NCBI RefSeq assembly: GCF_014203225.1
Contig: NZ_JACHIO010000004.1
Span: forward strand, 124,001 to 188,000
DNA: 64,000 nt
Origin: Granulicella mallensis
GTDB taxonomy: Bacteria > Acidobacteriota > Terriglobia > Terriglobales > Acidobacteriaceae
Direction of reading: 5' to 3'
Part shown: in pieces, positions 42,236-63,587 of the stretch
How the letters are laid out: each line of letters begins with the position of its first letter
How positions within the stretch are numbered: the first letter of the stretch is position 1
Made by a program: the position numbers and the translations under genes
Notes under the pieces: model-generated
Seen by the model: only the letters and a program-made list of their open reading frames with translations
Databases searched by the model: none
Told to the model about the DNA's origin: nothing

Positions 42236-42249
42236 GTCGAAAGGTCCTT

Positions 42250-44990: not shown

Positions 44991-45017
44991 GCCAGACACT
45001 TGTTCAGAGGTTAGTTA

Positions 45018-47161: not shown

Positions 47162-47225
47162 ATTCATTCAACAGCTATTCGAGACAGAGATTGAGCCGTG
47201 CAAATCGTTTCCTGTGGCAAGATCC

Positions 47226-47509: not shown

Positions 47510-47559
47510 AACGAAACGTGGCTTTTTCAGCACCATCGTTAGGCCCGAGCAGTCTTTCG

Positions 47560-47700
47560 GTTGCGAACAAAAGGCCCGGGGCTAAAGCCCGATTCTTGCC
47601 TGTTCCTTATTCCGTAGCCTAAAGGCTACGGCTCCCTCCGTCTCCCCGATGCTGAAGCATCGGGGAATGCGCTTCGCGCTGTCGTGAACAGGCCGTTATC
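47560..47700. repeat. C-TRAA-G hairpin mosaic including the uninterrupted (empty) site
   Basis: Three perfect hairpins in series: GGGCTAAAGCCC (47579-47590), a 20-base CCGTAGCC/GGCTACGG hairpin (47612-47631), and a 22-base CCCCGATGC/GCATCGGGG hairpin (47644-47665). The stretch 47566-47631 is the uninterrupted form of the sequence split by the element at 55865-56120. The remainder of the gap 47162-47831 has no gene. Confidence 0.7.
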
Positions 47701-47831
47701 CTTCAACGGGCTAAAGACTCGGGGCGCCGCACCAGCTTCATGGCAGCGGAGGAGATACCCCAGGCCCTGAACGCCGTTCACACGATTTTCATATTTGCCG
47801 CTGACCGGTGACATAGCTTAACAGTAGCCCT

Positions 47832-48512
47832 ATGAATGTTCTGGTAATTGAAGACGATAAAAGGATCGCGGGACTGGTCGAGCGCGGTCTGCGAGAGAAT
47901 GGGCACGAGGTCGTCCTTTCCCACAATGGCAAGGAAGGCGCCGAGATGATGTTGAACGGAAGATACGACGCCGCCCTGCTCGATATCTATCTGCCCGGCA
48001 TGGATGGCTTCGAGGTTCTGGAGCAGGTGCGGGCGCGCCGCTGCAAGACTCCCATCCTGATGCTGACCGCCGTGGATGCCGTCCCGAAGATCCTGCAGGC
48101 CTTCGACCTGGGCGCTGACGATTACCTGATCAAACCGTTTCTCCTGGAGATTCTGCTGGCGCGCGTAAGCGCCATCGCACGGCGCATGCAGCCCGTGGTC
48201 GAGCCGCCGGTGGTGCTAGCCGGAGGAATCACCCTGGATCGCAGCCGCCGGGTCGCGATACGTGGCGGAAAAGAGATCTACCTTACACGCAAGCAGTTTG
48301 AACTGCTCGACGCCCTGATGCGGCGCAGCGGCCTGGTGACCTCGCGAGACCAGTTGATCGAAGCGGGTTGGGGATACCTGGCGGATGTAAAGGAAAATAC
48401 GCTCGACGTCTACATCCACGGACTGCGGGCCAAGCTTGAAGACAAGACGCACGATAAACTTCCTCTGATCCGGACCATTCATGGAACGGGTTATATGTTC
48501 GTGACGGAGTAG
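47832..48512 (+). CDS. OmpR-family response regulator (second pair)
   Basis: A 226-residue response regulator. Receiver residues: Glu7-Asp8-Asp9 (VIEDD), phosphoacceptor Asp51 (ALLDIYLPGMDGFEVL), Thr79 (LMLTA) and Lys101 (DDYLIKPF). The winged helix contains LTRKQFELLDALMRRSGLVTSRDQLIEAGW and ENTLDVYIHGLRAKLEDK with GTGYMF at the end, as in CusR/QseB-like regulators. The kinase gene starts 9 bases after its stop. It is preceded by a repeat-rich gap with no clear operator. It is not closely similar to the 45018 protein beyond family motifs, so the pairs are not a fresh duplication. Confidence 0.94.
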   Translation: MNVLVIEDDKRIAGLVERGLRENGHEVVLSHNGKEGAEMMLNGRYDAALLDIYLPGMDGFEVLEQVRARRCKTPILMLTAVDAVPKILQAFDLGADDYLIKPFLLEILLARVSAIARRMQPVVEPPVVLAGGITLDRSRRVAIRGGKEIYLTRKQFELLDALMRRSGLVTSRDQLIEAGWGYLADVKENTLDVYIHGLRAKLEDKTHDKLPLIRTIHGTGYMFVTE

Positions 48513-48521
48513 AGGAACAGG

Positions 48522-50403: not shown

Positions 50404-50764
50404 GTTCCGTGCCTCAATGAACTGCTTGCACAGTTCGATCTTCATTACTCCGTATTGCTTCTTAAGAAAAGCTGAAATCCATCTGAAGGAAAACTGAAGG
50501 CCGATGGGATGCAACGCTCTTCCCGCGCCTGCGTTTCATGCCACCAACGACAAGAGGTTGCTGTTCAACACGAAGCAAAAGGGCCGTGGAATCAGGCTTT
50601 TTTGCATCTCCTGCAAGATCCGGTCACGATCTTGAAAAGAGAGCGGTTGCGGTCTGCCACCGCGCCAAAGTAACAGCAGACGGAATGTAACTCCAAGTTC
50701 ATACTCCGCAGCTACGTTTGCGAAACCAAGATGTTTATTGGTGTTTTTGGAGGAGACCTTGAAA

Positions 50765-53335
50765 TTGAAACAGGATTTGGTAAAGCTTTGGCGCTGCATC
50801 GTAGTTGCAAGCGTATTCGTGATTGTTTTCGCGGCAAGCCCCATCCGCATGTCGGGACAACAGGGACCGGATACAACTCTTACGGGAATTATCCTGGATC
50901 CGCAGGGCAATGCAGTACAGAACGCTACCGTGACCGTAAAGAATGAATCGACCAATGCCGTTCGCAAGCTCACTGCCGATGCCCAGGGACACTTCTCCTC
51001 CGTCGATTTGCCTGCGGGCAGATATACCGTTGAAGTCGCAGCGCCAGGCTTTGCCATCACCGACCGCACCGGGCTGCTCATCACGGCAGGCCAGTCGCAG
51101 GACATTTCGATCAAGCTGAACATCGGCAATGTGTCACAGCAGGTCACAGTCGACGGCTCCGGGGCCGACTCGGACTCCATCGCCGCTCAGACCTCGCCGG
51201 TTCAGTCCCTCCTGAATGCCCGCTCCGCGCGATCGGAGATCAGCTCCGAGTTCATTCAGCAGTTCACGTCTCCGGTGGCGGACTATACCGAGATCATTCA
51301 GATCGTTCCCGGCACCTTCACCATCAATACCAACGGAGTCGGCCTCGGCCAGGCGACCACTTCATTCCGCGGCTTCCAGGACGGCGAGTACGACATTACC
51401 TGGGATGGCATTCCCTTCCAGGATACGAATACTCCGAGCCACCACTCGTGGGCCTTCTTTCCGGGTCAGTGGATCGGCGGAGTCGACTTCGACCGCAGCC
51501 CCGGTTCTGCTTCCACCATCGGGCCTACCCCCTTCGGTGGATCGGTGAATCTTCTCTCCAAAGAGGTGCCGGTACAACATGCGGTACGGGGCACCGTCTC
51601 CTACGGCTCGTTCAATACTCTTCTACTGGACGGCGAGTACGACTCGGGCAGCATCGGCGCCAATCGCAAGACCAGCCTCTCGCTCGATGTGCACCGGCTG
51701 ACCTCGGACGGCTTCGAGACCTTCAACCATCAGGAGCGCAACGCAGGAGAGATCAAGGTACGGTACCAGTTCTCGGATAAGACGGTCTTGACCGGATTCA
51801 GCGGCGTCCTCATCCTCGATGCGAATACTCCCGACGCGAACCTGCCGACGCGAGACCAGGTAGCTCAGTTCGGATATAACTTCCTGCTGAACGATATTCC
51901 CAACGATCCTTCCAACTACCACTACAACAAGAACCATGTGCCTACCGACTTCGAGTATGTCGGAGTTAAATCACTGTTCGACCATGGCTGGAGCCTGGAC
52001 GTAAAGCCCTACACCTACAGCTACAACAACCATCAGCACTATACGAACATCGGTTCCATCACCACCCTTACGGATACGCCGACCGCCGCCGATCCGAATG
52101 GATATTGCGCAACGATTCAATCCAACGGCAGGCTGCCGTGCGGCATCGACAAGCTCAACAGCTATCGCCAGTACGGAGAGACCAGCACGATCAGCCAGAC
52201 CTCGAAGTACGGCGTCTTCCGCACAGGGCTCTGGTACAACTGGTCGACCACCAACCGCTTCCAGTTCCCTTCCGATCCGCTTACCGGCCTAGACCAGACC
52301 TTGCCGAACTTCCATGAGACGTACTACACCAACATCTATCAGCCTTATGCGGAGTACGAGTACCGCGCTATCCCCAGGCTCACGCTTACCGGTGGCTTGA
52401 AGTACGCCTACTACAACCAGAACTTCACGCAGTTCGCGGATGACGGCAAGGTAGTTGGAAACCTGAACGGCGCGGCGTCGATCAACAATGTCGCGGGGTA
52501 CCACTCCTACCTGCCGTCAGCGGATGCCAACTACCGCATCATGAATAACTGGTCGGTCTACGGCCAGTTCTCCAAGGGCAGCATCATTCCTCCGACCAGC
52601 GTCTTCGATGTGTCGACGGGAAAGGTCTCGGACCTGCCGAAGCCAACGGGAGTCTCCACCTACCAGACCGGTTCGGTGTTGAAGCTCAAGCGGCTGATGC
52701 TGGACGGCGATTTCTACTACATCAAGTTTCAGAACACCTATAGCGCCTTCAACCCAACCGATGGCCAGGGAGATACCCTCTATTTCCTAGGTCCGGACTC
52801 CTTCAGCAAGGGTGTCGAGCTCGAGACCAACGTGTCCTTGTGGAAGGGTCTGAGCTTCTATGCGAATGGAACTGTCGGCTCGGCAACCTACACGGGTGCG
52901 GGCGTGCCTTCGGGACTCTGGGTCACCAATACCCCGGCGAATACGCAAGGATACGGATTGACCTACCAGGATAAAAATATTGATCTTGGAATCTTCGATA
53001 AGCGTATTGGTCCGCAATGGAACGATAACGGCTCGTATCACAACCAGGTCTACACCGACTCCTTCAGCACCGTGAACCTGTTCCTGAACTACACGGTGAA
53101 GAATCATTCGCGCTTCAACGGCACCAAGATAGGGTTGAGCTTCAATAACCTGCTGAATGCGCACGATATCGTCGGCGTCATTCCGGCGGCATCGCCAAAC
53201 CCCTTGATCCTGCCCGATGGAACCACGTCGCCTTACCTTGCGACGACGGCTATCTCGGGAGGAGATCAGTTGACGCAAACCCCTGGGCGCAGTGTGATGC
53301 TTACGGTCACGTTCGGCTATACCGGCAAGCGATAG
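50765..53335 (+). CDS. TonB-dependent receptor, shorter type (~857 residues)
   Basis: I choose the TTG at 50765 because GGAGGAG (50749-50755) lies nine bases before it; an earlier TTG at 50738 lies upstream of that site. A signal peptide (CIVVASVFVIVFAASPIRMSG) leads to a carboxypeptidase-regulatory domain (LTGIILDPQGNAVQNATVTVKN). A classic plug follows: EIIQIVPGTFTINTNGVGLGQATTSFRGFQDGEYDITWDGIPFQDTNTP and GPTPFGGSVNLLSKE. The barrel ends in MLTVTFGYTGKR. The organised plug with SFRGF and YDITWDGIP resembles classical ferric-siderophore or vitamin receptors more than the Oar-like group in this window. It stands alone, closed by a strong terminator at 53383-53427. The ligand is unknown. Confidence 0.9.
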   Translation: MKQDLVKLWRCIVVASVFVIVFAASPIRMSGQQGPDTTLTGIILDPQGNAVQNATVTVKNESTNAVRKLTADAQGHFSSVDLPAGRYTVEVAAPGFAITDRTGLLITAGQSQDISIKLNIGNVSQQVTVDGSGADSDSIAAQTSPVQSLLNARSARSEISSEFIQQFTSPVADYTEIIQIVPGTFTINTNGVGLGQATTSFRGFQDGEYDITWDGIPFQDTNTPSHHSWAFFPGQWIGGVDFDRSPGSASTIGPTPFGGSVNLLSKEVPVQHAVRGTVSYGSFNTLLLDGEYDSGSIGANRKTSLSLDVHRLTSDGFETFNHQERNAGEIKVRYQFSDKTVLTGFSGVLILDANTPDANLPTRDQVAQFGYNFLLNDIPNDPSNYHYNKNHVPTDFEYVGVKSLFDHGWSLDVKPYTYSYNNHQHYTNIGSITTLTDTPTAADPNGYCATIQSNGRLPCGIDKLNSYRQYGETSTISQTSKYGVFRTGLWYNWSTTNRFQFPSDPLTGLDQTLPNFHETYYTNIYQPYAEYEYRAIPRLTLTGGLKYAYYNQNFTQFADDGKVVGNLNGAASINNVAGYHSYLPSADANYRIMNNWSVYGQFSKGSIIPPTSVFDVSTGKVSDLPKPTGVSTYQTGSVLKLKRLMLDGDFYYIKFQNTYSAFNPTDGQGDTLYFLGPDSFSKGVELETNVSLWKGLSFYANGTVGSATYTGAGVPSGLWVTNTPANTQGYGLTYQDKNIDLGIFDKRIGPQWNDNGSYHNQVYTDSFSTVNLFLNYTVKNHSRFNGTKIGLSFNNLLNAHDIVGVIPAASPNPLILPDGTTSPYLATTAISGGDQLTQTPGRSVMLTVTFGYTGKR

Positions 53336-53483: not shown

Positions 53484-53591
53484 TTTCCCGGTGGAATTTT
53501 GATAAAAGTGCAGCCGGTCTGCTGATAACCTATCTGGGATTCCCGGGCCCCGTTCTGCATATGTTTTACGCATAAAACCACCGTTCCGGTG
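53484..53591 (+). promoter_or_regulatory. Conserved 5' leader of propeller lipoprotein gene 1 with two hairpins
   Basis: The conserved upstream box TTTCCCGGTGGAATTTT (53484-53500) begins it. Hairpin 1 is GTTTTA/TAAAAC around CGCA (53563-53578); hairpin 2 is CACCG/CGGTG around TTC (53579-53591). Then TGGGAGA and the GTG at 53603 follow. The same layout precedes the other three genes. Confidence 0.6.
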
Positions 53592-53602: not shown

Positions 53603-55588
53603 GTGAAAAAACATCCTCTATCTTTTTCGTCTGTGGCCAGCGTACTGAGCGTGGCTTTTGCTCTGGGGCTGAGCGGCTGCTCGGCGAACTTCGGGGACGT
53701 CTCCACGGCCTCGACGCAGACCGCGATGCACATTCAGGGCGTGGTTCATGGCGGCCAGCAGCCGATCAGCGGCTCGCATGTGTATATGTATGCCGCCAGT
53801 ACGGCCGCTTATGGCGGGAACGGCATCGCCCCCACTTCCGGTGCTACCGGCAATGCGTCAACCTCGCTGCTGACGGCAGCAACGGGAAATCCAGCGGATA
53901 CGAATGGGAACTTCTACGTCACCACGGATACCTTTGGCGACTTCGATATCAATGGAGCCTTTGCCTGCACTTCCGGGCAGCAGGTCTACCTGTACTCGAC
54001 CGGCGGCGATCCGCAGTTGGCCGGAACCGGAGTAGCCGGCACCCCGAATCCCGCGGCCTCGCTGCTGGCGGTGGTGGGCGATTGCTCCAGCTCGGCCTTC
54101 CCGGGGGTTACGTCCGTAGCCATGAACGAGATCACCACGATGGTCGCGGCCTACACGCTGGCGGGCTTTGCGACAGACCCGCTGCACATCGGAGCGCCCA
54201 GCGCGGTAACTGGGCATGCGCTCTCCGGGACCGGGTTGGCCAACGCTTTCACTACCGCGCTGAATGTTGTGGACCAGGCCAGCGGAACGCCTCATGCGAC
54301 TTTCCCGGACAATAACCAGGTCACCGTTCCAGTGGAGAGCATGAACACCGCGGCGGACTTCCTGGCTGCCTGTATCAACTCCACCGGAGCCAGCTCGTCG
54401 GGATGCAGCACGCTCTTCGCCAACACGAATAACGGGACGGCTCCCACCGACACCGCAACGGCGGCCATCCACCTCGCGCAGAATCCAACCAGCAACCTCA
54501 ACGCTCTGCTCAATCTCGCGACCAACGCCAGCCCCTTTCAGCCGTTCTCTACCAGTGCCAAAACCCTGGCTCTCACGCTCAACTACTCCGGCGGCGGCCT
54601 GAACCAGCCAGAGGCAATTGCGATCGACGGGGCGGGAAACGCCTGGGTCGCAAATTCCGGAGGTAACTCCGTGACCGGGATTTCCAGCAACGGGACCTAT
54701 CTCTCCGGGGCCAACGGCTACGCCGGCGGCGGCATCAACATCCCCGATGGGATTGCGATCGACGGGGCGGGCAACGTCTGGGCAAGTAATTTCCAAAGCA
54801 ATTCCTTGACCAAGCTCTCCAATGACGGAGCATTCCTCTCCGGAGCCAATGGCTACACCGGTGGCGGCCTGAACGGGCCCGGTCCGATCGCGTTCGACGG
54901 CGCGGGCAACGTCTGGGTCACGAATACCGAGGGCGTCTCCATGACCGAGTTATCCAGCACCGGAACAGTTCTCTCCGGAGCCAACGGCTACATTGGCGGC
55001 GGCGTGAACGGCGCCTTTGGGGTCGCGATTGACGGCTCGGGCAACTCCTGGGTCGCGAATCTCGGAGAGAACTCCGTAGTCGAGCTTTCCAACACCGGGG
55101 TATTCCTCTCCGGAGCCAATGGCTACACTGACGGCAACCTGTTCGACCCCTTTGCGGTGGCAATCGACAGCTCGGGCAACGCCTGGGTGGTAAATTTCGG
55201 AGGGAACACCGTGACCGAATACTCCAATACAGGGGCAGTCCTCTCCGGGGCCAGGGGCTACATTGGCAGTGGTCTGAGTGAGCCAAGTGGGATCGCGATC
55301 GACGGCGCGGGTAATGTCTGGGTCGCAAATTCCGGACATAACACCGTGAGCGAACTCTCCAGTTCCGGAACCATCGTCTCCGGGACCGGCTTTTATACCG
55401 ACAGTAGCCTGTCCGAGCCCTTTGCAATCGCGACCGACGGCTCGGGCAACGTCTGGGTGACAAACTCCCAAGGCAACTCCGTGACGGAGATAGTCGGCGT
55501 TGCTGCCCCTGTGATTACTCCGCTCGTTGCCGGCCTGCCCGTTGTACCGACGAAGGACGGAAGTAGCAACCTGGGCACGCGCCCGTAG
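53603..55588 (+). CDS. Seven-bladed NHL-type propeller lipoprotein, paralog 1
   Basis: About 661 residues. A lipoprotein signal (LSVAFALGLSGC, lipidated Cys26) anchors it. Then comes an Ig-like domain (IQGVVHGGQQPISGSHVYMYAAST), a helical middle domain (about 150-320), and seven tandem repeats of about 42 residues, each with PxxIAIDGAGNxWVxN and L-SGANGY-GG. The C-terminus ends KDGSSNLGTRP in all paralogs. Seven repeats predict a complete seven-bladed propeller. The GTG at 53603 is chosen because it sits behind GGGAG and aligns with the other paralogs; an in-frame GTG at 53591 lies within hairpin 2. It is the first of four tandem paralogs. Surface adhesion or binding is possible; no catalytic residues are seen. 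Confidence 0.85.
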   Translation: MKKHPLSFSSVASVLSVAFALGLSGCSANFGDVSTASTQTAMHIQGVVHGGQQPISGSHVYMYAASTAAYGGNGIAPTSGATGNASTSLLTAATGNPADTNGNFYVTTDTFGDFDINGAFACTSGQQVYLYSTGGDPQLAGTGVAGTPNPAASLLAVVGDCSSSAFPGVTSVAMNEITTMVAAYTLAGFATDPLHIGAPSAVTGHALSGTGLANAFTTALNVVDQASGTPHATFPDNNQVTVPVESMNTAADFLAACINSTGASSSGCSTLFANTNNGTAPTDTATAAIHLAQNPTSNLNALLNLATNASPFQPFSTSAKTLALTLNYSGGGLNQPEAIAIDGAGNAWVANSGGNSVTGISSNGTYLSGANGYAGGGINIPDGIAIDGAGNVWASNFQSNSLTKLSNDGAFLSGANGYTGGGLNGPGPIAFDGAGNVWVTNTEGVSMTELSSTGTVLSGANGYIGGGVNGAFGVAIDGSGNSWVANLGENSVVELSNTGVFLSGANGYTDGNLFDPFAVAIDSSGNAWVVNFGGNTVTEYSNTGAVLSGARGYIGSGLSEPSGIAIDGAGNVWVANSGHNTVSELSSSGTIVSGTGFYTDSSLSEPFAIATDGSGNVWVTNSQGNSVTEIVGVAAPVITPLVAGLPVVPTKDGSSNLGTRP

Positions 55589-55613
55589 CTTATTCGGCTT
55601 CAGGCTCTACCCG

Positions 55614-55652
55614 GCGCCCATTCCTGCGTGTTCTTCGCGCAGGGGTGGGCGA
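55614..55652 (+). terminator. Hairpin terminator after propeller gene 1
   Basis: GCGCCCATTCCTGCG pairs with CGCAGGGGTGGGCG around a 9-base loop, using two T-G pairs, 25 bases after the stop. Related hairpins recur at 56270-56310, 58470-58510 and 60890-60930. Confidence 0.6.
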
Positions 55653-55722
55653 CTTCGTTCGTTAGGCGCAGGCTAGCGTGATGAGTCATTCGTTCATTGA
55701 AGGGTGATGGTCTGTTCAGCAC

Positions 55723-55864
55723 AGCGCGAAGCGCGTTCCCTGATGCTTCAGCATCAGGGAGTCGGAGGGAGCCGTAGCCTTTAGGCTACGGAATAAGAGG
55801 CTGGCAAAGATGTGGCCTTTAGGCCCGGGCCTTCTTTCGGCTGCGAACAAAAGGCCCGGGGCTA
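55723..55864. repeat. C-TRAA-G hairpin mosaic after propeller gene 1
   Basis: It contains a GCGCGAAGCGCG palindrome, a 22-base hairpin at 55738-55759 (GATGC-TTCA-GCATC core), a 20-base hairpin at 55772-55791 (GTAGCC-TTTA-GGCTAC core), and the left half of the GGGCTAAAGCCC hairpin, which is cut by the adjoining element. A near-identical copy of the first part, less 11 bases, lies at 60703-60763. Confidence 0.7.
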
Positions 55865-56120
55865 GGTAGTGTCTGACGAATCGGAGCTACCGGCTTGTGT
55901 CGTTGTTTTTGCTTCTGAGGTAGGTCCGGGCTTTAGCCATGGAGAGGCTCTTTGCCAAGCGAGCATTCCCTCCGTGGCTAAAGCCACACTAACAACAGTG
56001 CATAGACGGCGGGACTGAAGTCCCGCCCCTTCAAAGCAAAGGCAATCGGCGGGGCAAAGACGACAACAAAAAACAGCCACAAGGACAAAAGCCGGCAGCT
56101 CCGATTCGTCAGACACTACC
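55865..56120. mobile_element. 256-bp MITE-like element with terminal inverted repeats and TA duplication
   Basis: The two ends are inverted repeats: the outer 24 bases match perfectly (GGTAGTGTCTGACGAATCGG then AGCT) and the similarity continues to about 33 bases. The flanks are TA at 55863-55864 and TA at 56121-56122. The joined flanks match an uninterrupted sequence at 47566-47631. Inside are two hairpins of the C-TRAA-G family (55974-55987 and 56008-56027). No open frame encodes a transposase. TA duplication suggests an IS630/Tc1-mariner-type mobiliser acting in trans. Confidence 0.8.
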
Positions 56121-56225
56121 TAAAGCCCAATTCTTGCCTGCCCCTTATTCCGTAGCCTAAAGGCGATTGCCTCCCTTACCCTCCGTTCCGCGACGCTAAA
56201 GCGTCACGGTTGGCGCTTCGCGCTA
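56121..56225. repeat. Right half of split hairpin mosaic
   Basis: This continues the sequence interrupted by the 256-bp element: AAGCCC, TTCCGTAGCCTAAAGGC (now degenerate) and a GACGCTAAAGCGTC hairpin at 56192-56205, with GCGCTTCGCGC. A similar module with the same hairpin is at 60799-60812. Confidence 0.6.
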
Positions 56226-56269
56226 TGGGTAACGCTGGTTGACTCAGCACACTAGCCTCTTCGCTACCC

Positions 56270-56310
56270 GACGCTCATTCCCGCGTGTTCTTTGCGCAGG
56301 GGTGGGCGCC
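56270..56310 (+). terminator. Recurrent hairpin before propeller gene 2
   Basis: GACGCTCATTCCCGCG pairs imperfectly with GCGCAGGGGTGGGCGCC around TGTTCTTT. It is a second copy of the hairpin after gene 1 and precedes the gene 2 leader, in the same position that the 60890-60930 hairpin has ahead of gene 4. Confidence 0.45.
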
Positions 56311-56333
56311 TTTGTTTGTGATGCGCAGGCTGA

Positions 56334-56447
56334 TTTTCCGGTGAAGTTTACCCCTTGCTATTCAAAGTGCTGTTTATCTGCTGTTAGGCTATCTGGAGTT
56401 CAAGAACAGTTCTGGGTAAGTTTCAGCATGAAACCACCGTTCCGGTG
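56334..56447 (+). promoter_or_regulatory. Conserved 5' leader of propeller gene 2
   Basis: Upstream box TTTTCCGGTGAAGTTTA at 56334-56350. Hairpin 1 here is GTTTC/GAAAC around AGCAT (56420-56434): both arms differ from copy 1 yet remain paired. Hairpin 2 CACCG/CGGTG (56435-56447) is unchanged. GGGAG then precedes the GTG at 56459. Confidence 0.6.
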
Positions 56448-56458
56448 TGGGAGACTTC

Positions 56459-58444
56459 GTGAAAAACCATCGTCTATTCTTCTCGTCCGTGGCCAGCGTA
56501 CTGGGCGTGGCTTTTGCTCTGGGGTTGAGCGGCTGCTCGGCGAACTTCGGAACCTCTTCCGATACCGCGGCGCAGACCGCGATGCATATTCGTGGCGTGG
56601 TTCATGGAGGCCAGCAGCCGATCAGCGGCTCGCATGTCTATATGTATGCCGCCAGCACAGCCGCTTATGGCGGCCGGGGCATTGCTCCCACTTCAGGGGC
56701 TACCGGCAATGCATCAACCTCGCTGCTGACTGCGGCGACCGGAAACCCGGCGGATACGAACGGGAACTTCTACGTCACTACAGACACCTTTGGCAACTTC
56801 GATATCAATGGGAACTTTGCCTGCACTCCGAATACCCAGGTCTACCTGTACTCGACCGGTGGCGATCCACAGTTGGCCGGCGTAGGAGTCGCCGGCACAC
56901 CGAATCCTGCAGCTTCGCTGATGGCTGTCGTGGGCAACTGCGCCAGTGCGACGGCCAGCGCGGCCTTCCCGGGTGTTACGTCGGTGTCGATGAATGAGGT
57001 CAGCACAGTGGTAACAGCGTTTGCCCTGGCGGGCTTTGCCACCGATCCCCTGCACGTCGGCGCGCCCAGCGCGGTGACGGGCCATGCACTCTCCGGGACC
57101 GGCCTGGCGAATGCCTTCGGGACCGCGTTGAATATTGTGAATCAGGCCAGCGGAGTTCCCAATCCGACCTTCCCAAGCAATAGCAGCGTCACCGTTCCTG
57201 TAACCAGGATCAACACCGTGGCGGACTTCCTGGCTGGCTGTGTCAACTCCAACGGAGTCAGCTCGTCGGGATGCAGCACGCTCTTCTCCAATACGACTTA
57301 TGGCACAGCCCCTACCGATACGGCAACGGCGGCCATTAACTTCGCGCAGAACCCGAGTGGCCACATCGGCGCTCTGTTCACTCTGGCCACCAATGCCAGT
57401 CCCTTCCAGCCCTTCTTCAGCTCGGCCAATGACTTGTCTCTCACCCTCAACTATGCCGGCGGCGGCCTGAACCAACCAGAGGCGATCGCGATCGACGGCG
57501 CGGGCAACGTCTGGGCGGCGAATGCCGGACGTGGCTCTGTAACCGAGATCTCCAGTGCCGGGACCTTTCTCTCCGGAGCCAACGGGTACACCGGCGGCGG
57601 CCTGAGCTCCCCAGAGGCAATCGCGATCGACGGCGCAGGCAACGCCTGGGTGGGGAATGTCTCAAGTAATTCCGTGACCAAACTCTCCAGCACCGGGACA
57701 GTTCTCTCCGGCACCAACGGGTATACCGGCGGCGGCCTGGCCGCGCCAAAGGCGATCGCGATCGACGCCGCGGGCAACGCCTGGGTGGCGAATACCGACG
57801 GTAATTCCGTGACCGAGATCTCCAATGCCGGGGCATTCCTCTCCGGAGCCAACGGGTACAGTGGTGGCGGCCTGTCCGATCCGGAGGGAATCGCGATCGA
57901 TGGTTCGGGCAACGCCTGGGTGAGCAATTTCGGTGGCTCCGCCATGACCGAGTTCTCCAATGCCGGGCCATTAGTCTCCGAGCACACCGGCGGTAGCCTG
58001 AGCTTTTCAGAGGGCATCGCGGTCGATGGCGCGGGCAACACCTGGACGCCAAATGGCTTAAGTGACCTTGTGACGGAGTTCTCCAATGCCGGGGTAATCC
58101 TCTCCGGGAACGGCTACACCGGCGGCGGCCTGAACGAGCCCTTTGGAATCGCAATCGACGGTGCGGGCAACGCCTGGCTGCCGAATTTCAGTGGCGAAAC
58201 CGTGACCGAGTTCTCCAGTACCGGAGCCATCCTCTCCGGGACCGGCTTCTATACCGGCGGCGGCCTGAACGGGCCCGAGGGGATCGCGATCGATGGCTCG
58301 GGCAACGTCTGGGTGGCAAATTTCAACGGCAACTCCCTGACCGAGCTGGTCGGTGCCGGTGCCCCCGTGATTACTCCGATCTCTGCCGGTCTGCCCGTGA
58401 TCCCGACGAAGGACGGAAGCAGCAGCCTGGGCACACGCCCGTAG
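56459..58444 (+). CDS. Seven-bladed NHL-type propeller lipoprotein, paralog 2
   Basis: About 661 residues, with the lipobox LGLSGC. Its early domain has CTPNTQVYLYSTGGDPQL and CASATASAAFP like paralog 3, but its middle domain (GHALSGTGLANAFGT, TFPSNSSVTVPV, AQNPSGHIGALFTL) groups with paralog 1. Seven propeller repeats are present; the fifth begins GGSLSFSEGIAVDGAGNTWTPN after a shortened linker (SEHTGG instead of SGANGYTGG). The GTG start aligns with the other copies. Upstream DNA includes the leader and the repeat cluster; it probably has its own transcript because a hairpin separates it from gene 1. Confidence 0.85.
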   Translation: MKNHRLFFSSVASVLGVAFALGLSGCSANFGTSSDTAAQTAMHIRGVVHGGQQPISGSHVYMYAASTAAYGGRGIAPTSGATGNASTSLLTAATGNPADTNGNFYVTTDTFGNFDINGNFACTPNTQVYLYSTGGDPQLAGVGVAGTPNPAASLMAVVGNCASATASAAFPGVTSVSMNEVSTVVTAFALAGFATDPLHVGAPSAVTGHALSGTGLANAFGTALNIVNQASGVPNPTFPSNSSVTVPVTRINTVADFLAGCVNSNGVSSSGCSTLFSNTTYGTAPTDTATAAINFAQNPSGHIGALFTLATNASPFQPFFSSANDLSLTLNYAGGGLNQPEAIAIDGAGNVWAANAGRGSVTEISSAGTFLSGANGYTGGGLSSPEAIAIDGAGNAWVGNVSSNSVTKLSSTGTVLSGTNGYTGGGLAAPKAIAIDAAGNAWVANTDGNSVTEISNAGAFLSGANGYSGGGLSDPEGIAIDGSGNAWVSNFGGSAMTEFSNAGPLVSEHTGGSLSFSEGIAVDGAGNTWTPNGLSDLVTEFSNAGVILSGNGYTGGGLNEPFGIAIDGAGNAWLPNFSGETVTEFSSTGAILSGTGFYTGGGLNGPEGIAIDGSGNVWVANFNGNSLTELVGAGAPVITPISAGLPVIPTKDGSSSLGTRP

Positions 58445-58469
58445 CCTCTTCGGCTTCGGGACTCTACCC

Positions 58470-58510
58470 GGCGCTCATGCCTACGCGTTCTTCGCGCAGG
58501 GGTGGGCGCC
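58470..58510 (+). terminator. Hairpin after propeller gene 2
   Basis: GGCGCTCATGCCTACGCG pairs with CGCGCAGGGGTGGGCGCC, with a few wobble or mismatched pairs, around TTCTT; 26 bases after the stop. Confidence 0.55.
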
Positions 58511-58533
58511 TTCGTTCGTCAGGCGCAGGCTCA

Positions 58534-58673
58534 TTTTCCGGTGAAGTTTTGCCTCCTGCTGTCCAAAGTGCAGCCGATCTGCTGCTAATCTAGGTTGACT
58601 CGTCCCCTTTCGCTCCATCTGGACCCGGCCCGCTTTCTCCATAGTTTTACGCATAGAAATCACCGTTCCGGTA
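58534..58673 (+). promoter_or_regulatory. Conserved 5' leader of propeller gene 3
   Basis: Upstream box TTTTCCGGTGAAGTTTT (58534-58550). Hairpin 1 is GTTTTA/TAGAAA with one G-T wobble and an open base pair (58644-58659). Hairpin 2 is CACCG/CGGTA (58661-58673), one pair shorter. GGAG at 58676-58679 precedes the TTG start. Confidence 0.55.
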
Positions 58674-58683
58674 TCGGAGAATC

Positions 58684-60699
58684 TTGAAAAATCGACAGTT
58701 GTCCTTTTCGTCCGTGCCCAGCCTGTTGGGTGTGGCTTTTGTCCTTGGCCTGAGCGGCTGCTCAGCGAACTTCGGGGATGTTTCCAATACCACGGCCCAA
58801 ACTGCGATGCACATTCAAGGCGTGGTTCATGGAGGCCAGCAGCCGATCAGCGGCGCGCATGTCTATATGTATGCCGCCAGCACCGCCGCTTATGGTGGCC
58901 AGGGGATTGCTCCCACCTCCGGGACTACCGGCAATGCGTCGACCTCATTGCTGACCTCTGCGACGGGGAATCCGGCGGATGGAAGCGGGAACTTCTACGT
59001 CACCACGGACACCTTTGGCAACTTCAATATCAATGGGTCGTTCGCTTGCACCCCGAACACCCAGGTCTATCTGTATTCGAGCGGCGGAGATCCGCAGTTG
59101 ACGGGCGTAGGTATTCCCAGCACCCCGAACTCCGCAGCCACGCTGATGGCGGTGGTGGGAGATTGCGCCAGTGCGACGCCCGGCTCCGCTTTCCCGAACG
59201 CTACGAACGTGTACATGAACGAGATCACCACGGTTGCCGCTGCCTATGCCCTGGCGGGCTTTGCCACCGACCCGCTGCACATCGGCGCGCCCAGCACGGT
59301 TGCGGGCCATTCGCTCTCCGGGATAGGCCTGGCCAATGCTTTCGCTACCGCACTGAACATCGTGAACCAGGCCACCGGAGTTCCCAATGCAACCTTGCCT
59401 CTGAACACCACCGCCGTCGTTCCCGTGAGCACGATCAACACTGTGGCGGATATCCTGGCCGCCTGCGTCAACTCCAACGGGATCAGCTCGTCCGGTTGCA
59501 GCACGCTCTTCGCTAACACGACGTACGGTACAGCGCCCGGCGATATCGCAACCGCTGCGATCAATCTTGCTCAGCACCCGGGAGCCAGCGTCTCCAATCT
59601 GCTCGTTCTGGCAACCAACGCCAGTCCCTTCCAGCCATTCATCAGCTCTCTCAACGATCTATCCCTCGCTATCAACTATTCTGGCGGCGGCTTGAACACT
59701 CCCGATGGAATCGCGATCGATGCCGCAGGCAACGCCTGGGTGGTGAATTTAATAGCAAGTAGCCCCGTGATCAAGATCTCCAGCGCCGGGGCATTCCTCT
59801 CCGGTGCTAACGGCTACACCGGCGGTGGACTGAACAATCCCCAGAACATTACGATCGACGGCGCGGGCAACGCCTGGGTGGCGAATGAGGGGGATAGTTC
59901 CGTGATCGAGTTTTCCAGCGTGGGGGCAGTCCTCTCCGGGACCAACGGCTACACCGGCGGTGGCTTGAACGAGCCAATCGCGATCGCGTTCGACGGCGCG
60001 GGCAACGCCTGGGTGAATAATTTCGGGAATAATTCCGTGACCGAGCTCTCCAGCGTGGGGGCAGCCCTCTCCGGGACCAACGGCTACACCGGCGGTGGCA
60101 TGAACCTGTCAAGCGGGGTCGCGATCGACGGCGCGGGCAACGCCTGGGTGTCTAATTTCAACGGCAACTCCGTGACCGAGCTCTCCAATGCCGGGGCAGT
60201 CCTCTCCGGGACCAATGGCTACACTGGCGGTGGCATGCTCGAGCCCTTTACCATCGCGATCGACAGCGCGGGTAACGCCTGGGTGGTGAATGCGGGGGAT
60301 AACTCCGCGACCAAGACCTCCGTGACCAAGATTTCCAATACCGGAGCACTCCTCTCCGGAGCCAGCGGCTACACGGGCGGTGGACTGAATAGTTCCGAGG
60401 GCATTGCGATCGATGGCGCGGGCAACGTCTGGGTGTCTAATTTCAACGGTAACTCCGTGACCGAGCTCTCCAATACCGGGGCAGTCCTCTCCGGAGCCAA
60501 CGGCTACCTCAGCGGCGGCTTGAACGAACCCAATGTAATCGCGATCGATGGCTCGGGCAACGCCTGGGTAGTGAATTTCGGAGCTACCTCCGTGACCGAG
60601 ATGATCGGCATCGGTATCCCCGTGATTACTCCCATCGCTGCCGGTTTGCCCGTGATCCCAACGAAGGACGGAAGCAGCAACCTGGGCACACGGCCGTAG
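58684..60699 (+). CDS. Seven-bladed NHL-type propeller lipoprotein, paralog 3 (TTG start)
   Basis: A 671-residue member of the array. Here the aligned start codon is TTG behind GGAG four bases away; the upstream in-frame GTG of paralogs 1 and 2 is absent, which supports the aligned start in all four. Lipobox LGLSGC. The early domain resembles paralog 2 (CTPNTQVYLYSSGG), but the middle domain (GHSLSGIGLANAF, ATLPLNTTAVVPV, AQHPGASVSNLL) matches paralog 4. There are seven repeats; two (starting near 60118 and 60415) are nearly identical in DNA (AGNAWVSN/AGNVWVSNFNGNSVTELSN), and the fifth has a six-residue linker insertion (SATKTS). Confidence 0.85.
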   Translation: MKNRQLSFSSVPSLLGVAFVLGLSGCSANFGDVSNTTAQTAMHIQGVVHGGQQPISGAHVYMYAASTAAYGGQGIAPTSGTTGNASTSLLTSATGNPADGSGNFYVTTDTFGNFNINGSFACTPNTQVYLYSSGGDPQLTGVGIPSTPNSAATLMAVVGDCASATPGSAFPNATNVYMNEITTVAAAYALAGFATDPLHIGAPSTVAGHSLSGIGLANAFATALNIVNQATGVPNATLPLNTTAVVPVSTINTVADILAACVNSNGISSSGCSTLFANTTYGTAPGDIATAAINLAQHPGASVSNLLVLATNASPFQPFISSLNDLSLAINYSGGGLNTPDGIAIDAAGNAWVVNLIASSPVIKISSAGAFLSGANGYTGGGLNNPQNITIDGAGNAWVANEGDSSVIEFSSVGAVLSGTNGYTGGGLNEPIAIAFDGAGNAWVNNFGNNSVTELSSVGAALSGTNGYTGGGMNLSSGVAIDGAGNAWVSNFNGNSVTELSNAGAVLSGTNGYTGGGMLEPFTIAIDSAGNAWVVNAGDNSATKTSVTKISNTGALLSGASGYTGGGLNSSEGIAIDGAGNVWVSNFNGNSVTELSNTGAVLSGANGYLSGGLNEPNVIAIDGSGNAWVVNFGATSVTEMIGIGIPVITPIAAGLPVIPTKDGSSNLGTRP

Positions 60700-60702
60700 A
60701 AC

Positions 60703-60830
60703 GGCGCGAAGCGCGTTCCCTGATGCTTCAGCATCAGGGAACCGTAGCCTTTAGGCTACGGAATTCAAGCCTCGGAAGAGTCTGGCCTTTAGGCCCGCGA
60801 CGCTAAAGCGTCACGGTTTGCGCTTCGCGC
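60703..60830. repeat. C-TRAA-G hairpin mosaic directly after propeller gene 3
   Basis: It begins four bases after the stop codon. It holds GCGCGAAGCGCG, hairpins at 60718-60739 and 60742-60761 matching those after gene 1, then GGCCTTTAGGCC and GACGCTAAAGCGTC (60799-60812), as in the module at 56192. It is a fusion of both modules without the 256-bp insertion. Confidence 0.7.
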
Positions 60831-60889
60831 TATGGGTAACGCTGGCTCTTCAACAAACTAAAGACTCCACACTAGCCTCTTCGCTACCC

Positions 60890-60930
60890 GGCGCTCATTC
60901 CTGCGTGTTCTTCGCGCAGGAATGAGCGCC
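60890..60930 (+). terminator. Perfect 16-bp hairpin before propeller gene 4
   Basis: GGCGCTCATTCCTGCG (60890-60905) pairs perfectly with 60915-60930 around TGTTCTTCG, followed by TTTGTT. It is the best-preserved copy of the four related hairpins and is a good intrinsic terminator for the upstream unit. Confidence 0.75.
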
Positions 60931-60955
60931 TTTGTTCGTTACACACGAATTAAGA

Positions 60956-61070
60956 TTTCCGGTGAAGTTTACCCCCTTGCTATCTAATGTGCGGCTGAGC
61001 TGCTGCTAACCTAGGTGCATTCGGGCCCCTGTTCTGCATAAGTTTTACGCATAAGACCACCGTTCCGGTG
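60956..61070 (+). promoter_or_regulatory. Conserved 5' leader of propeller gene 4
   Basis: Upstream box TTTCCGGTGAAGTTT (60956-60970). Hairpin 1 is GTTTTA/TAAGAC with one G-T wobble (61042-61057) and hairpin 2 is CACCG/CGGTG (61058-61070). GGGAG then precedes the GTG at 61083. Confidence 0.6.
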
Positions 61071-61082
61071 TGGGAGAATTTC

Positions 61083-63071
61083 GTGAAAAACCATCGTCTA
61101 TCCTTCTCGTCTGTGGCCAGCATACTGGGCATGGCTTGCGCTCTGGGGCTGAGCGGTTGCTCGGCGAACTTCGGGGATGTCTCCAACACCTCAGCGCAGA
61201 CCGCGGTGCACATTCAAGGCGTGGTTCATGGCGGCCAGCAGCCGATCAGCGGAGCGCATGTCTATATGTATGCCGCCAGCACGGCTGCTTATGGTGGTAA
61301 CGGCATCGCCCCCACCTCCGGGGTAACCGGCAATGCGTCGACCTCGCTGCTGACAGCAGCGACGGGAAATCCGGCGGACACGAACGGGAATTTCTACGTC
61401 ACTACGGACGCCTTTGGCAACTTCAGTATCAATGGGGCGTTCGCCTGCTCTTCCGGCCAGCAGGCCTATCTCTACTCCACCGGCGGTGATCCGCAGTTGA
61501 ATGGCGTAGGAGTGGCCGGGACGCCTAATCCCGCAGCCACTCTGCTGGCGGTAGTGGGCGACTGCACCGGCTCGGCCTTCCCTGGGGTCACATCCGTATC
61601 GATGAACGAGGTCACCACAGTCGCTGCCGCGTATGCGTTGGCGGGATTTGCCACCGACCCGCTGCACATCGGCGCGCCCAGCGCGGTGGCGGGCCATTCA
61701 CTCTCCGGCATTGGGTTGGCCAACGCCTTCGGTACCGGGTTGAATCTCGTGAACCAGACCAGCGGAGTTCCCAATGCAACCTTGCCTCTGAACATCACCG
61801 CCGTCGTTCCCGTGACTACGATCAACACCCTCGCGGACATGCTCGCCTCCTGCATCAACTCCAACGGCGTCAGCTCGTCGGGATGCAGCACGCTCTTCGC
61901 CAACACGACCTACGCCACGACGCCCACCGATACGGCCACGGCCGCCATCAACATCGCGCAGCACCCGGGAGCCAGCGTCTCCAACCTGCTCGCTCTGGCA
62001 ACCAATGCCAGTCCCTTCCAGCCCTTCGTTAGCGCTGCCAACGACTTGTCTCTCGCGATCAACTACACCGGCGGCGGCTTGAACCAGCCCGATGCGGTCG
62101 CAATCGACGGCGCAGGCAACGCCTGGGTGGCGAATGACATACAAAATGCCTCCGTGACCAAGATCTCCAGCGCCGGGGCATTCCTCTCCGGAGCTAACGG
62201 CTACACCGGCGGTGGACTGGACGCTCCCGATGGGATCACAATCGACGATTCGGGCAACGCCTGGGTGGCGAATTTCACATCGGGCACCGTGACCGAGCTC
62301 TCCAATGCCGGGGCAATCCTCTCCGGAACCAACGGATACTTTGGCGGTGGCCTGAACGAGCCCCTTGCGATCGCGATCGACGGCGCGGGCAACGCCTGGG
62401 CGACGAATTTAGTAGGTAGCTCCGTGACCAAACTCTCCAGCGCCGGGGTAGTCCTTTCCGGGCCCAGCGGCTACACTGGCGGCGGCCTGAGCGAGCCCTT
62501 TGGGCTTGCGATCGACGGCGCGGGCAACGCCTGGGCGGCGAATTTCGACGGTAGCTCCGTGACCAAGCTCTCCAATACCGGAGCTGCCCTCTCCGGAGCC
62601 AACGGCTATACCGGCGGCGGACTGAACGGGCCCTTTGGGATCGCGATCGACGGCGTGGGCAACGTCTGGACGGCGAATGGTTTTGGAAACTCCATGACCA
62701 AACTCTCCAACGCCGGGGTAGCCCTCTCCGGGCCCGGCGGCTATACCGGCGGCGGAATGGCCGAGCCCCTTGCGGTCGCGATCGATGGCGCGGGCGACAT
62801 CTGGGTGACGAATTTCGAAGCTAACTCCGTGGCCGAACTCTCCAATACCGGAGCAATCCTCTCCGGAGCCAACGGCTACACCAGCGGCGGCCTGAACGAG
62901 CCCAATGCGATCGCAATCGATGGCTCGGGCAACGCCTGGGTCAGTAATATCAACAATAGCTCCGTGACCGAGACGATCGGCATTGGTACCCCCGTGATTA
63001 CGCCCATCGCTGCCGGTCTGCCCGCTATCCCGACGACGGACGGAAGCAGCAACCTGGGCACACGTCCGTAG
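61083..63071 (+). CDS. Seven-bladed NHL-type propeller lipoprotein, paralog 4
   Basis: About 662 residues, the last of the array. Lipobox LGLSGC; the early domain (CSSGQQAYLYSTGG, short GDCTGSAFP) groups with paralog 1, while the middle domain (GHSLSGIGLANAFGT, ATLPLNITAVVPV, AQHPGASVSNLLAL) groups with paralog 3. Seven propeller repeats with PxxxAIDGAGNAWxxN cores are present, including a sixth with AGDIWVTN in place of AGNxW. The GTG at 61083 aligns with the other starts; an upstream in-frame GTG at 61068 lies in hairpin 2. Followed by a strong hairpin at 63145-63192. Confidence 0.85.
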   Translation: MKNHRLSFSSVASILGMACALGLSGCSANFGDVSNTSAQTAVHIQGVVHGGQQPISGAHVYMYAASTAAYGGNGIAPTSGVTGNASTSLLTAATGNPADTNGNFYVTTDAFGNFSINGAFACSSGQQAYLYSTGGDPQLNGVGVAGTPNPAATLLAVVGDCTGSAFPGVTSVSMNEVTTVAAAYALAGFATDPLHIGAPSAVAGHSLSGIGLANAFGTGLNLVNQTSGVPNATLPLNITAVVPVTTINTLADMLASCINSNGVSSSGCSTLFANTTYATTPTDTATAAINIAQHPGASVSNLLALATNASPFQPFVSAANDLSLAINYTGGGLNQPDAVAIDGAGNAWVANDIQNASVTKISSAGAFLSGANGYTGGGLDAPDGITIDDSGNAWVANFTSGTVTELSNAGAILSGTNGYFGGGLNEPLAIAIDGAGNAWATNLVGSSVTKLSSAGVVLSGPSGYTGGGLSEPFGLAIDGAGNAWAANFDGSSVTKLSNTGAALSGANGYTGGGLNGPFGIAIDGVGNVWTANGFGNSMTKLSNAGVALSGPGGYTGGGMAEPLAVAIDGAGDIWVTNFEANSVAELSNTGAILSGANGYTSGGLNEPNAIAIDGSGNAWVSNINNSSVTETIGIGTPVITPIAAGLPAIPTTDGSSNLGTRP

Positions 63072-63194: not shown

Positions 63195-63587
63195 TTAGGA
63201 CTTGTCTTTAAAGGTGAGTGTGATCGACGTATCCGTCGCGTCCGTGGGGACATAGACGAGGGGACCGCCTCCGTCATCTTCACTATCACTGATGACTTGA
63301 AATTGCGGTGAACTCAGGCCAACGGCCTGACCGGAGCCTACTTCCATATACCGCTCGTCGCTGTTATAGGTAAAGCAGAGGCCCATATCGCCTCCAGAGG
63401 TGGAGACGTCAGCGTCATAAGTAGAGCCGACATGGACCTGCTTTTCCGGCGACAACTGAAACGGACTGTGCGCCACTACACCGTCGAAGACAAGTATCAT
63501 GTCGTCAAAATTCGGGTCGCGATCTATCGTGATCGTGTTCCTGGCTTTGTTGATGATTAACGCGGTATTCGGATACGTCTTGCTCAT
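63195..63587 (-). CDS. Unrecognised small beta-rich protein
   Basis: A 130-residue protein with no signal peptide or membrane segment. It begins MSKTYPNTALIINKARNTITIDRDPNFDDMILVFDG and ends VYVPTDATDTSITLTFKDKS. Alternating hydrophobic residues suggest a beta-sheet fold; an acidic patch (SDSEDDGGG) lies near residue 100. One cysteine (GLCFTY) is present. The reading frame is uninterrupted, begins with ATG, and is bounded by a hairpin. It does not resemble its array neighbours and I cannot assign a family. Confidence 0.6.
   Translation of the reverse strand: MSKTYPNTALIINKARNTITIDRDPNFDDMILVFDGVVAHSPFQLSPEKQVHVGSTYDADVSTSGGDMGLCFTYNSDERYMEVGSGQAVGLSSPQFQVISDSEDDGGGPLVYVPTDATDTSITLTFKDKS

What the first reader, a model, noticed from the sequence alone, without database searches (positions are those of the whole stretch)
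53603..63071. Tandem array of four seven-bladed propeller lipoproteins
Four adjacent genes encode paralogous lipoproteins of nearly equal length (about 661-671 residues). Each has an LSGC lipobox, an Ig-like domain, a helical middle domain, exactly seven tandem repeats of about 42 residues with an AIDGAGNxWVxN core, and the shared end DGSSNLGTRP. Seven repeats in all four, despite sequence drift, points to selection for a closed seven-bladed propeller rather than free repeat expansion. The arrangement suggests a family of variant surface-exposed binding proteins. The combination of lipid anchor, Ig domain and propeller in tandem copies is not one I recognise as described.
Basis: partly seen in the sequence, partly recalled or inferred. 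Interest (0 to 1): 0.72.

Follow-up and report, generated by a model that had tools for sequence, protein, structure and literature searches.

The report
Diversified seven-bladed propeller lipoprotein gene array
A soil bacterium carries four neighbouring copies of a surface-type lipoprotein whose seven-bladed propeller keeps its frame but varies strongly on one face, and cousins of these genes appear to split the same propeller between two proteins, which may hold large secreted proteins at the cell surface.

Summary
Four adjacent genes (661, 661, 671, 662 aa) encode lipoproteins with seven NHL/Vgb-type repeats of mostly 45 residues. AlphaFold2 gives a confident region of seven repeat units; the best Foldseek fit by target among 50 rows listed is seven-bladed virginiamycin B lyase. 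Seven is the norm in the family (72 of 100 complete members by HMM, 84 of 96 by span). The genome is a Granulicella. A close relative (G003) has seven copies between the same flanks, only two of them shared. Variation concentrates, in every blade, at b-c and d-a loop positions that face one side. Between 20 array-type proteins these are nearly as unlike as unrelated blades, while the scaffold is 67% identical; orthologues of other subfamilies show less contrast. No catalytic site is conserved. Omega there is about 0.83, so positive selection is not shown. Silent changes cluster in 4 of 5 family orthologue pairs, not in two flanking genes, which suggests gene conversion. I read it as a birth-and-death repertoire of binding proteins; ligand unknown. 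A side finding may matter more: in 13 of 13 loci examined, a short family member ends after strand a of blade 4 and the upstream gene, usually large and of varying type, ends in the complementary half.

The parts
53603..55588 (+). array gene 1, 661 aa lipoprotein; orthologue in G003 95.0% identical
56459..58444 (+). array gene 2, 661 aa lipoprotein; orthologue in G003 (its copy 4) 92.6% identical
58684..60699 (+). array gene 3, 671 aa lipoprotein (TTG start); no close orthologue found in G003
61083..63071 (+). array gene 4, 662 aa lipoprotein; protein used for the structure model; no close orthologue found in G003
54563..55510 (+). seven-repeat propeller of gene 1 with its closing N-terminal strand (ends approximate)
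57431..58366 (+). seven-repeat propeller of gene 2 (ends approximate)
59656..60621 (+). seven-repeat propeller of gene 3 (ends approximate)
62043..62993 (+). seven-repeat propeller of gene 4, predicted as seven repeat units (ends approximate)
53579..53591 (+). leader CACCG-TTC-CGGTG, able to form a hairpin, just before the Shine-Dalgarno of gene 1
56435..56447 (+). same leader before gene 2
58661..58673 (+). same leader before gene 3, last base A instead of G, so the outer pair is lost
61058..61070 (+). same leader before gene 4
60890..60930 (+). 18-pair terminator-like hairpin between genes 3 and 4
   Evidence: the scan's total, 7, is not above its shuffles, 9.1
50738..53335 (+). TonB-dependent receptor upstream of the array; conserved flank, not a general neighbour of the family

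Best explanation
The four genes are a birth-and-death array of secreted, lipid-anchored binding proteins. Shown or well supported by computation: each is a lipoprotein with a propeller of seven NHL/Vgb-type blades; the array differs by whole genes between two closely related genomes; family members carry mosaic tracts that fit exchange between paralogues; the array copies of the window genome and of G003 share a leader found only in front of this clade in the three genomes scanned; in every blade the most variable positions lie on one side of the ring, while the rest of the blade (with a few intermediate positions) and the N-terminal stalk are better conserved. Inferred: the variable face is a ligand-binding face, so the array and its dispersed copies present different specificities on a common stalk at the outer surface. 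The ligand could be a polysaccharide, a protein partner, or a phage or rival receptor; I cannot choose. They are most likely not enzymes.
For: Fold: (TM by target 0.84 to seven-bladed Vgb 2z2p; 0.64-0.71 to the six-bladed Pizza6 rows). Seven in relatives: 72 of 100 complete members by HMM, 84 of 96 by span. Copy number 4 versus 7 in conserved flanks, only 2 shared. Mosaic silent divergence: permutation p 0.0005-0.0015 in 4 of 5 family pairs, 0.49 and 0.15 in flanking TBDR and kinase. Most variable positions 2,3,5,6,18,20-23 over seven blades of 20 proteins; strand order in the model puts them at the d-a and b-c loops or the strand ends next to them, one face. Within-genome array-type pairs differ there at 0.79 versus 0.31 elsewhere in the blade (medians, 47 pairs); RBH pairs of other subfamilies 0.50 versus 0.32 (31 pairs). 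Identity at these positions between the 20 proteins 0.226 at the same blade, 0.200 at different blades; scaffold 0.671 and 0.612. An independent tandem pair in G003: 0.89 versus 0.38. No conserved His, and no conserved Glu on that face. Leader hits 14 of 14 in front of this clade.
Against: Omega at the variable positions is 0.82 (5 closest pairs) and 0.83 (all 190 pairs), and 0.43 in three own/G003 orthologue pairs, equal to the rest of the blade (0.44), so relaxed constraint is not excluded. The positions were chosen by entropy in the same 20 proteins, so the array-type contrast is partly circular, and the cut is not sharp: position 6 (1.68) is in the set, while 34 (1.81, strand d) and 31 (1.62, c-d turn on the other face) are not. 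Of four within-genome paralogue pairs outside that set, two show the effect (0.84, 0.89) and two do not (0.22 in G203:C34, 0.42 in G023:C7). Array-type orthologues also vary there (4 of 5 RBH pairs at 0.60-0.76). Asn at position 19, at the top end of strand b, is well conserved (116 of 140) and could belong to a site. Surface exposure and binding are untested. N-terminal domains are modelled at low confidence.
Confidence: 0.6

Rival explanations
1. Neutral drift after duplication: loops of a stable propeller are simply free to vary, and the array is a dosage or by-product expansion without selected specificities.
For: Omega below 1 at the variable positions and equal to the rest in orthologue pairs; G003 copy 7 has a premature stop; two tandem pairs show no excess.
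Against: At similar scaffold divergence, orthologues of other subfamilies vary less at the same positions (0.50 versus 0.79; 0.42 versus 0.71), so the positions are not generally free; the turns of the opposite face differ alike in both sets (0.34 and 0.33).
Confidence: 0.25
2. Enzymes of the Vgb lyase or SMP-30/gluconolactonase type, duplicated for substrate range.
For: Pfam Vgb_lyase above cut-off for gene 1 and SGL above cut-off for 4 of 4; same fold.
Against: Polar columns conserved at 90% or more on the propeller are mostly structural and repeat from blade to blade; no His among them, and the only Glu is in strand c of blade 7. The face that holds the active site in Vgb (recalled) is the most variable one here. 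NCBIfam VgbA reaches 17 and 23 bits in two of the four, cut-off 600.
Confidence: 0.05
3. Docking heads for other secreted proteins: the propeller itself is a protein-protein dock, as suggested by the split-propeller gene pairs of the same family, and the varied faces of the array fit different protein partners.
For: 13 of 13 half members examined sit directly downstream of a gene ending in the complementary half.
Against: Array members carry a complete propeller and no such gene is among the window neighbours read; in the pairs the partner would join by completing the ring, not by the variable face.
Confidence: 0.15
4. SusD-like partner of the TonB-dependent receptor next door.
For: TBDR directly upstream in the window genome and in G003.
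Against: tblastn of the window TBDR over the loci held found it only at this locus and its G003 counterpart, besides a 134-residue N-terminal match in L077; the G009 array has none in its 20-kb stretch. Many loci have flanks of 1.5-5 kb only, so this is limited.
Confidence: 0.05

Closest known systems
Virginiamycin B lyase (Vgb, PF24684; PDB 2z2n, 2z2p, 2qc5)
   Same: seven-bladed propeller with related repeats; gene 1 above the Pfam cut-off; TM by target 0.75-0.84
   Different: no conserved catalytic residues found; lipid anchor and a 300-residue N-terminal part; variable rather than conserved top face
NHL-repeat propellers: extracellular domain of Mycobacterium tuberculosis PknD (1rwi), TRIM NHL domains, designed Pizza proteins
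   Same: repeat sequence (A2 profile E 1e-31 to 1rwi, 2e-47 to a Pizza6 variant) and fold
   Different: those are six-bladed (recalled; Pizza6 by name); not lipoproteins and not in tandem gene arrays as far as I recall
Fungal HNWD NLR sensors (het-d, het-e; PMC12222747 and PMC4986451, passages read)
   Same: propeller with the same few hypervariable positions in each repeat on the interaction surface, in a multigene family
   Different: there the repeats are over 80% identical, vary in number, and the positions are under diversifying selection; here blades within a protein are 52% identical over positions 1-34, seven is the norm, omega is below 1, and there is no NLR
Newly amplified propellers with near-identical blades (PMC6805158 seen in the search listing with the start of its abstract; PMC9218822 passages)
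   Same: propellers built from recognisably repeated blades
   Different: no sign here of recent blade-level amplification: whole genes duplicate, and mean scaffold identity is highest between same-index blades of different proteins (0.671 against 0.625 within a protein)
Blade completion between chains: Sec13-Sec31 and Nup145C, Ralstonia solanacearum lectin (recalled, not read)
   Same: a propeller completed by another polypeptide, as proposed for the split pairs
   Different: there one blade is donated, or identical subunits assemble; here the cut lies inside blade 4, between an anchored lipoprotein and proteins of differing type

Membership tests
Virginiamycin B lyase (Vgb) | Pfam PF24684 above the curated cut-off (50 bits) | tested here: inconclusive
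   61.4, 36.7, 19.7, 45.8 bits; 1 of 4 above
Virginiamycin B lyase (Vgb) | seven-bladed propeller fold | tested here: met
   (prediction)
Virginiamycin B lyase (Vgb) | conserved catalytic His/Glu on the top face (residue roles recalled; H270A is in the title of 2z2p) | tested here: not met
   no conserved His; no conserved Glu on the variable face; His 0.7% of variable-position residues
Virginiamycin B lyase (Vgb) | streptogramin B cleavage | not testable with these tools
   needs an enzyme assay
NHL repeat proteins (PF01436) | Pfam NHL above the cut-off (20 bits) | tested here: met
   44.7, 45.3, 31.8 bits for genes 1, 2, 4; gene 3 17.3, below it (3 of 4 met)
Bacterial lipoproteins | signal peptide with lipobox and Cys, conserved in relatives | tested here: met
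   G-C invariant in 12 aligned proteins, 4 of them the window's; lipobox by eye, no signal-peptide program run
Surface-exposed outer membrane lipoproteins | location on the outer face | not testable with these tools
   Ser at +2; no localisation data
Diversifying propeller receptors (HNWD type) | hypervariable positions at the same places of each repeat, on one face | tested here: met
   cut-off not sharp (positions 31 and 34 intermediate)
Diversifying propeller receptors (HNWD type) | positive (diversifying) selection at these positions | tested here: not met
   omega 0.82-0.83 in close and all pairs, 0.43 between orthologues; crude pairwise method
Diversifying propeller receptors (HNWD type) | high internal repeat identity and repeat-number polymorphism | tested here: not met

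The most novel reading that the evidence does not exclude
Acidobacteriaceae use the seven-bladed propeller as a programmable head on one lipid-anchored stalk, in two modes. In the window array the head is closed and one face is diversified into a repertoire. In at least 13 gene pairs of relatives, one of them in this genome, the head is cut inside blade 4: the lipoprotein holds the closing strand, blades 1-3 and strand a of blade 4, and the adjacent gene, in 12 of 13 a large protein, of differing type (with pro-kumamolisin, astacin, FG-GAP or TIG domains among others), ends with strands b-d of blade 4, blades 5-7 and a family-like tail. Assembly of the two halves into one ring would tether exoproteins to the cell, a two-chain propeller dock that I have not seen described.
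Probability: 0.45. Interest if true: 0.82.

Novelty: new variant of a known kind. Interest (0 to 1): 0.6.

Why it matters
Hypervariable-face repertoires on repeat scaffolds are known best from eukaryotic receptors (recalled); a gene array that turns over between closely related soil bacteria would offer a tractable bacterial case. The N-terminal stalk of about 300 residues matches no Pfam model in the window proteins. If the split pairs assemble, they define a modular way in which these bacteria fix large proteins, some with protease domains, on their surface, and a natural split-protein tag for engineering.

Tried and rejected
Enzyme reading rejected. TonB-receptor partnership not general in the loci held. 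Positive selection tested and not shown. Recent blade shuffling or concerted evolution of blades within a protein not supported (of 140 blades the best match in another protein had the same index in 64 and a different index in 76; for 11 a blade of the same protein was closer still; no cross-index match above 85%). Defence function: PADLOC PD-T4-6 hits (E 1e-5 to 2e-9) fall mostly on the NHL-type repeats, so I do not take them as a sign of defence. Plasmid relatives of the N-terminal part: no match. CBM96 search was a poor first guess and empty. PDB sequence relatives of the N-terminal part: none at E 1 or better. Papers: no paper holds both 'Granulicella' and 'NHL repeat'; 'seven-bladed, propeller, lipoprotein, paralogous, tandem' together 0 papers; 'split propeller' and three like phrases 0 papers; the listings showed nothing on this family by title and start of abstract. 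The library lacks most subscription journals and preprints. PMC5900883 (passages) speaks of paralogues in soil Acidobacteria in general only.
Full report
OBSERVATION. The window is G000:C4:124001-188000 of a 6.47-Mb genome. It groups in one genus with G009; G009 contig C26 has the same length and match coordinates as NZ_LMUH01000009.1 of Granulicella sp. S156, so the host is a Granulicella (Acidobacteriaceae). The four ORFs are real and adjacent. With starts that fit a Shine-Dalgarno they run 53603-55588, 56459-58444, 58684-60699 and 61083-63071. They are 67.5-75.0% identical to each other. Each has a lipobox LSGC-S, a beta-rich part, a helical part, seven repeats, and the end DGSS(N/S)LGTRP. 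The repeat is mostly 45 residues (42-50), not 42. The mature proteins are very acidic (pI 4.05-4.10) with 5-8 Lys+Arg in 636-646 residues, and have four cysteines besides the lipid one.

FOLD. AlphaFold2 on gene 4 with 12 rows gives block means of 75-95 over residues 331-630 (67 for 321-330): seven successive units of three strands with short fourth-strand segments, preceded by an extra strand (324-329) that can close the ring. I could not view the coordinates, so closure is inferred from the strand list and the fold search. The N-terminal and middle parts are poorly modelled (30-71). Foldseek ranks designed Pizza6 first by E-value, but among the 50 rows listed TM by target is highest for seven-bladed Vgb (0.84 for 2z2p, 0.82 for 2z2n, against 0.64-0.71 for the Pizza6 rows). 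Pfam hits are SGL, NHL and Vgb_lyase, among weaker propeller-type families. The N-terminal 300 residues have no Pfam match in the window proteins. Of 14 relatives one matches CarboxypepD_reg at E 0.002; four match Ketoacyl-synt_C (best E 0.0072) and one ApbA_C (0.24), which I take as chance. They match no PDB sequence at E 1 or better.

SEVEN REPEATS. Of 100 unique complete ORFs of the family in the loci held (fragments of broken genes among them), 72 have exactly seven HMM-detected repeats; the others have 0 (1), 1 (1), 3 (2), 4 (3), 5 (5), 6 (15) and 8 (1). The 8 is window gene 3, which reads as seven; I take the extra hit as false. By span, 84 of the 96 with four or more detected fit seven; the rest are 6 (1), 8 (8), 13 (1, window gene 3) and 14 (2). 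The repeat model was built from the window genes, so divergent repeats are under-counted.

FAMILY AND COPY NUMBER. In 28 genomes of the genus, 24 have a match at E 1e-20 or better, 0-26 matches per genome (fragments and more distant relatives included). The window genome has seven members above 1000 bits: the four here and three dispersed. Family-wide, 12 of 200 sampled genomes have E 1e-100 or better (at most 6 candidates scored per genome). The N-terminal part reaches E 1e-8 in 19 of 297 genomes of the phylum, 17 of them in the same family (at most 7 scored).

BIRTH AND DEATH. G003 keeps the upstream flank (response regulator 98.2%, kinase 99.4%, TonB receptor 98.4% protein identity; DNA 92-96%) and the downstream flank (DNA 90-96%). 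Between them it has seven copies; only copies 1 and 4 are orthologous to window genes 1 (95.0%) and 2 (92.6%). Window genes 3 and 4 have nothing above 75% among the G003 members compared. G003 copy 7 has a premature stop. G009 has three tandem copies, without shared flanks in the 60 kb compared. In a tree of 32 members, three genomes interleave without genome-specific clustering (14 changes, shuffled mean 13.3). The dispersed copy at C9:160759 has no close counterpart in the G003 loci compared, and 4.5 kb upstream of it match G003 only in pieces at 66-77%, besides two of about 30 bases at 89-94%.

MOSAICS. Silent differences are unevenly spread in 4 of 5 family orthologue pairs (p 0.0005-0.0015), not in the TonB receptor (0.49), the kinase (0.15) or the fifth family pair, C8:255342 (0.16). 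For example window gene 2 versus G003 copy 4 has dS 0.51 in the middle part and 0.095 in the propeller. This fits exchange between paralogues.

VARIABLE FACE. Over 20 array-type proteins, mean entropy within the 45-residue unit is highest at positions 2, 3, 5, 18 and 20-23 (2.1-2.9), then 34 (1.81), 6 (1.68) and 31 (1.62), and lowest at D10, G13, W16, G32, L35, S36 and G37 and their like. I took 2, 3, 5, 6, 18 and 20-23 as the set. Domain means are 0.51 (beta part), 0.67 (middle), 1.12 (propeller) and 0.43 (C-end). In the model, strand a is positions 4-9, b 15-19 and c 24-28, so 20-23 is the b-c loop, 1-3 the end of the d-a loop, and 5, 6 and 18 the strand ends next to them. By antiparallel order all lie on the same side; positions 31 (c-d turn) and 34 (strand d) do not. 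Identity at the set between the 20 proteins at the same blade is 0.226, nearly that of different blades (0.200); scaffold 0.671 versus 0.612.

CONTROLS. Pairs of like divergence: array-type 0.712 (set) versus 0.248 (rest), 9 pairs; others 0.424 versus 0.264, 9 pairs, of which one is an independent tandem pair at 0.89 versus 0.38. Among 110 members of 29 genomes (19 of them array-type), with rest-of-blade difference 0.15-0.40, medians are: within-genome array-type pairs 0.79 versus 0.31 (47 pairs); RBH pairs of other subfamilies 0.50 versus 0.32 (31); array-type RBH 0.66 versus 0.23 (5). The four other within-genome pairs are at 0.84, 0.89, 0.42 and 0.22. Mann-Whitney on the ratios of the first and the second group gave p 8e-13, but pairs are not independent. 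Against: the positions were picked on the array-type set, and tandem pairs in G203 and G023 do not show the effect. Nei-Gojobori omega at the set is 0.82 (5 closest pairs) and 0.83 (all 190 pairs), against 0.20 in the N-domain and 0.40-0.41 in the rest of the blade; in three own/G003 orthologue pairs it is 0.43 versus 0.44. So diversification is shown, selection for it is not.

NOT AN ENZYME. Polar propeller columns conserved at 90% or more in the array-type set are mostly structural residues repeated from blade to blade (D10, N14, W16, S29, S36); none is His, and the only Glu is in strand c of blade 7. Asn 19 of blade 6, near the variable face, is invariant.

REGULATION. Of the 11 array copies of G000 and G003, 10 carry CACCGTTCCGGTG, able to form a hairpin, directly before the Shine-Dalgarno; window gene 3 has CACCGTTCCGGTA. 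With one mismatch allowed the leader pattern occurs 5, 8 and 1 times in G000, G003 and G009, all 14 just upstream of members of this clade; the reversed-pattern control gives 0 (places compared). G003 copy 3 falls outside the pattern. No sigma-70-like promoter was found.

SPLIT PROPELLER. In this genome, L115:2834-7339 (1501 aa; FG-GAP, DUF7933) ends with about three and a half blades and ..NTLGTRP. It is followed by L115:7362-8705 (447-aa lipoprotein) with the family stalk, three blades and strand a of a fourth. I then picked short members from the hit lists by length. 13 complete ones with this end, in 12 genomes of three genera, were examined: 13 of 13 have, directly upstream on the same strand, a frame ending in about three to four family blades plus a family-like tail. 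The distance from its stop to the lipobox Cys is 48-199 nt in the 12 with a recognised lipobox. By eye the cut is between strands a and b of blade 4 in 12 of 13; in L186 the partner's half blade is unclear, and L187 and L222 run on for some residues past strand a. Partner frames are 1050 aa or longer in 12 of 13 (four of them, in L183, L184, L225 and L226, reach the edge of the stretch held) and 338 aa in L187. That they are secreted is inferred (a signal peptide seen by eye in L115 only). Twelve of the 13 partners were scanned with Pfam: pro-kumamolisin in three (L185, L188, L221), astacin (L222), FG-GAP with DUF7933 (L115, L182) or with Big_3_5 (L226), TIG with NHL (L184, L225), SBBP with DUF7948 (L186), no match (L183), and propeller-type matches only (L187). 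Left out: L223 and L224 (cut by contig ends), L190 (three blades with the tail, a different variant), L227 (no blades), and G025:C142 (stops inside, not examined); the list was capped. Gene order is the reverse of a simple fission.

VERDICT. The family is a new variant of NHL/Vgb-type propeller proteins.

Noticed in passing
L115:2834-7339 and 7362-8705 (window genome C22); also L181, L182, L183, L184, L185, L186, L187, L188, L221, L222, L225, L226: Gene pairs in which a lipoprotein and an upstream, mostly large protein each carry about half of a seven-bladed propeller, apparently complementary at strand a/b of blade 4.
   Followed up: partly
window 55863-56122: MITE-like element of 260 bp with 44-nt inverted ends (93% complementary) between array genes 1 and 2, where G003 has two extra gene copies; near-full-length copies elsewhere in both genomes.
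   Followed up: partly
window 55814-55864 and elsewhere: 51-base REP-like repeat with many copies at 90-100% identity in G000 and G003.
   Followed up: no
window 53579-53591, 56435-56447, 58661-58673, 61058-61070: Hairpin-like leader before the Shine-Dalgarno, found only in front of this clade in three genomes.
   Followed up: partly
L029, L030: The same N-terminal stalk in longer proteins of Granulicella MAGs whose C-terminal parts show no propeller repeats (one hit and none by HMM).
   Followed up: no
L190 (G191:C1, 476 aa): Short member with the stalk, three blades and the family C-terminal tail, unlike the half members.
   Followed up: no
window 63195-63587, minus strand: 130-aa ORF downstream of the array, not found in the G003 stretch searched; no Pfam match.
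   Followed up: no
window 37795-49943: RND efflux pump (AcrB-type, HlyD, OEP) on the minus strand and two OmpR-type two-component systems upstream of the array.
   Followed up: no
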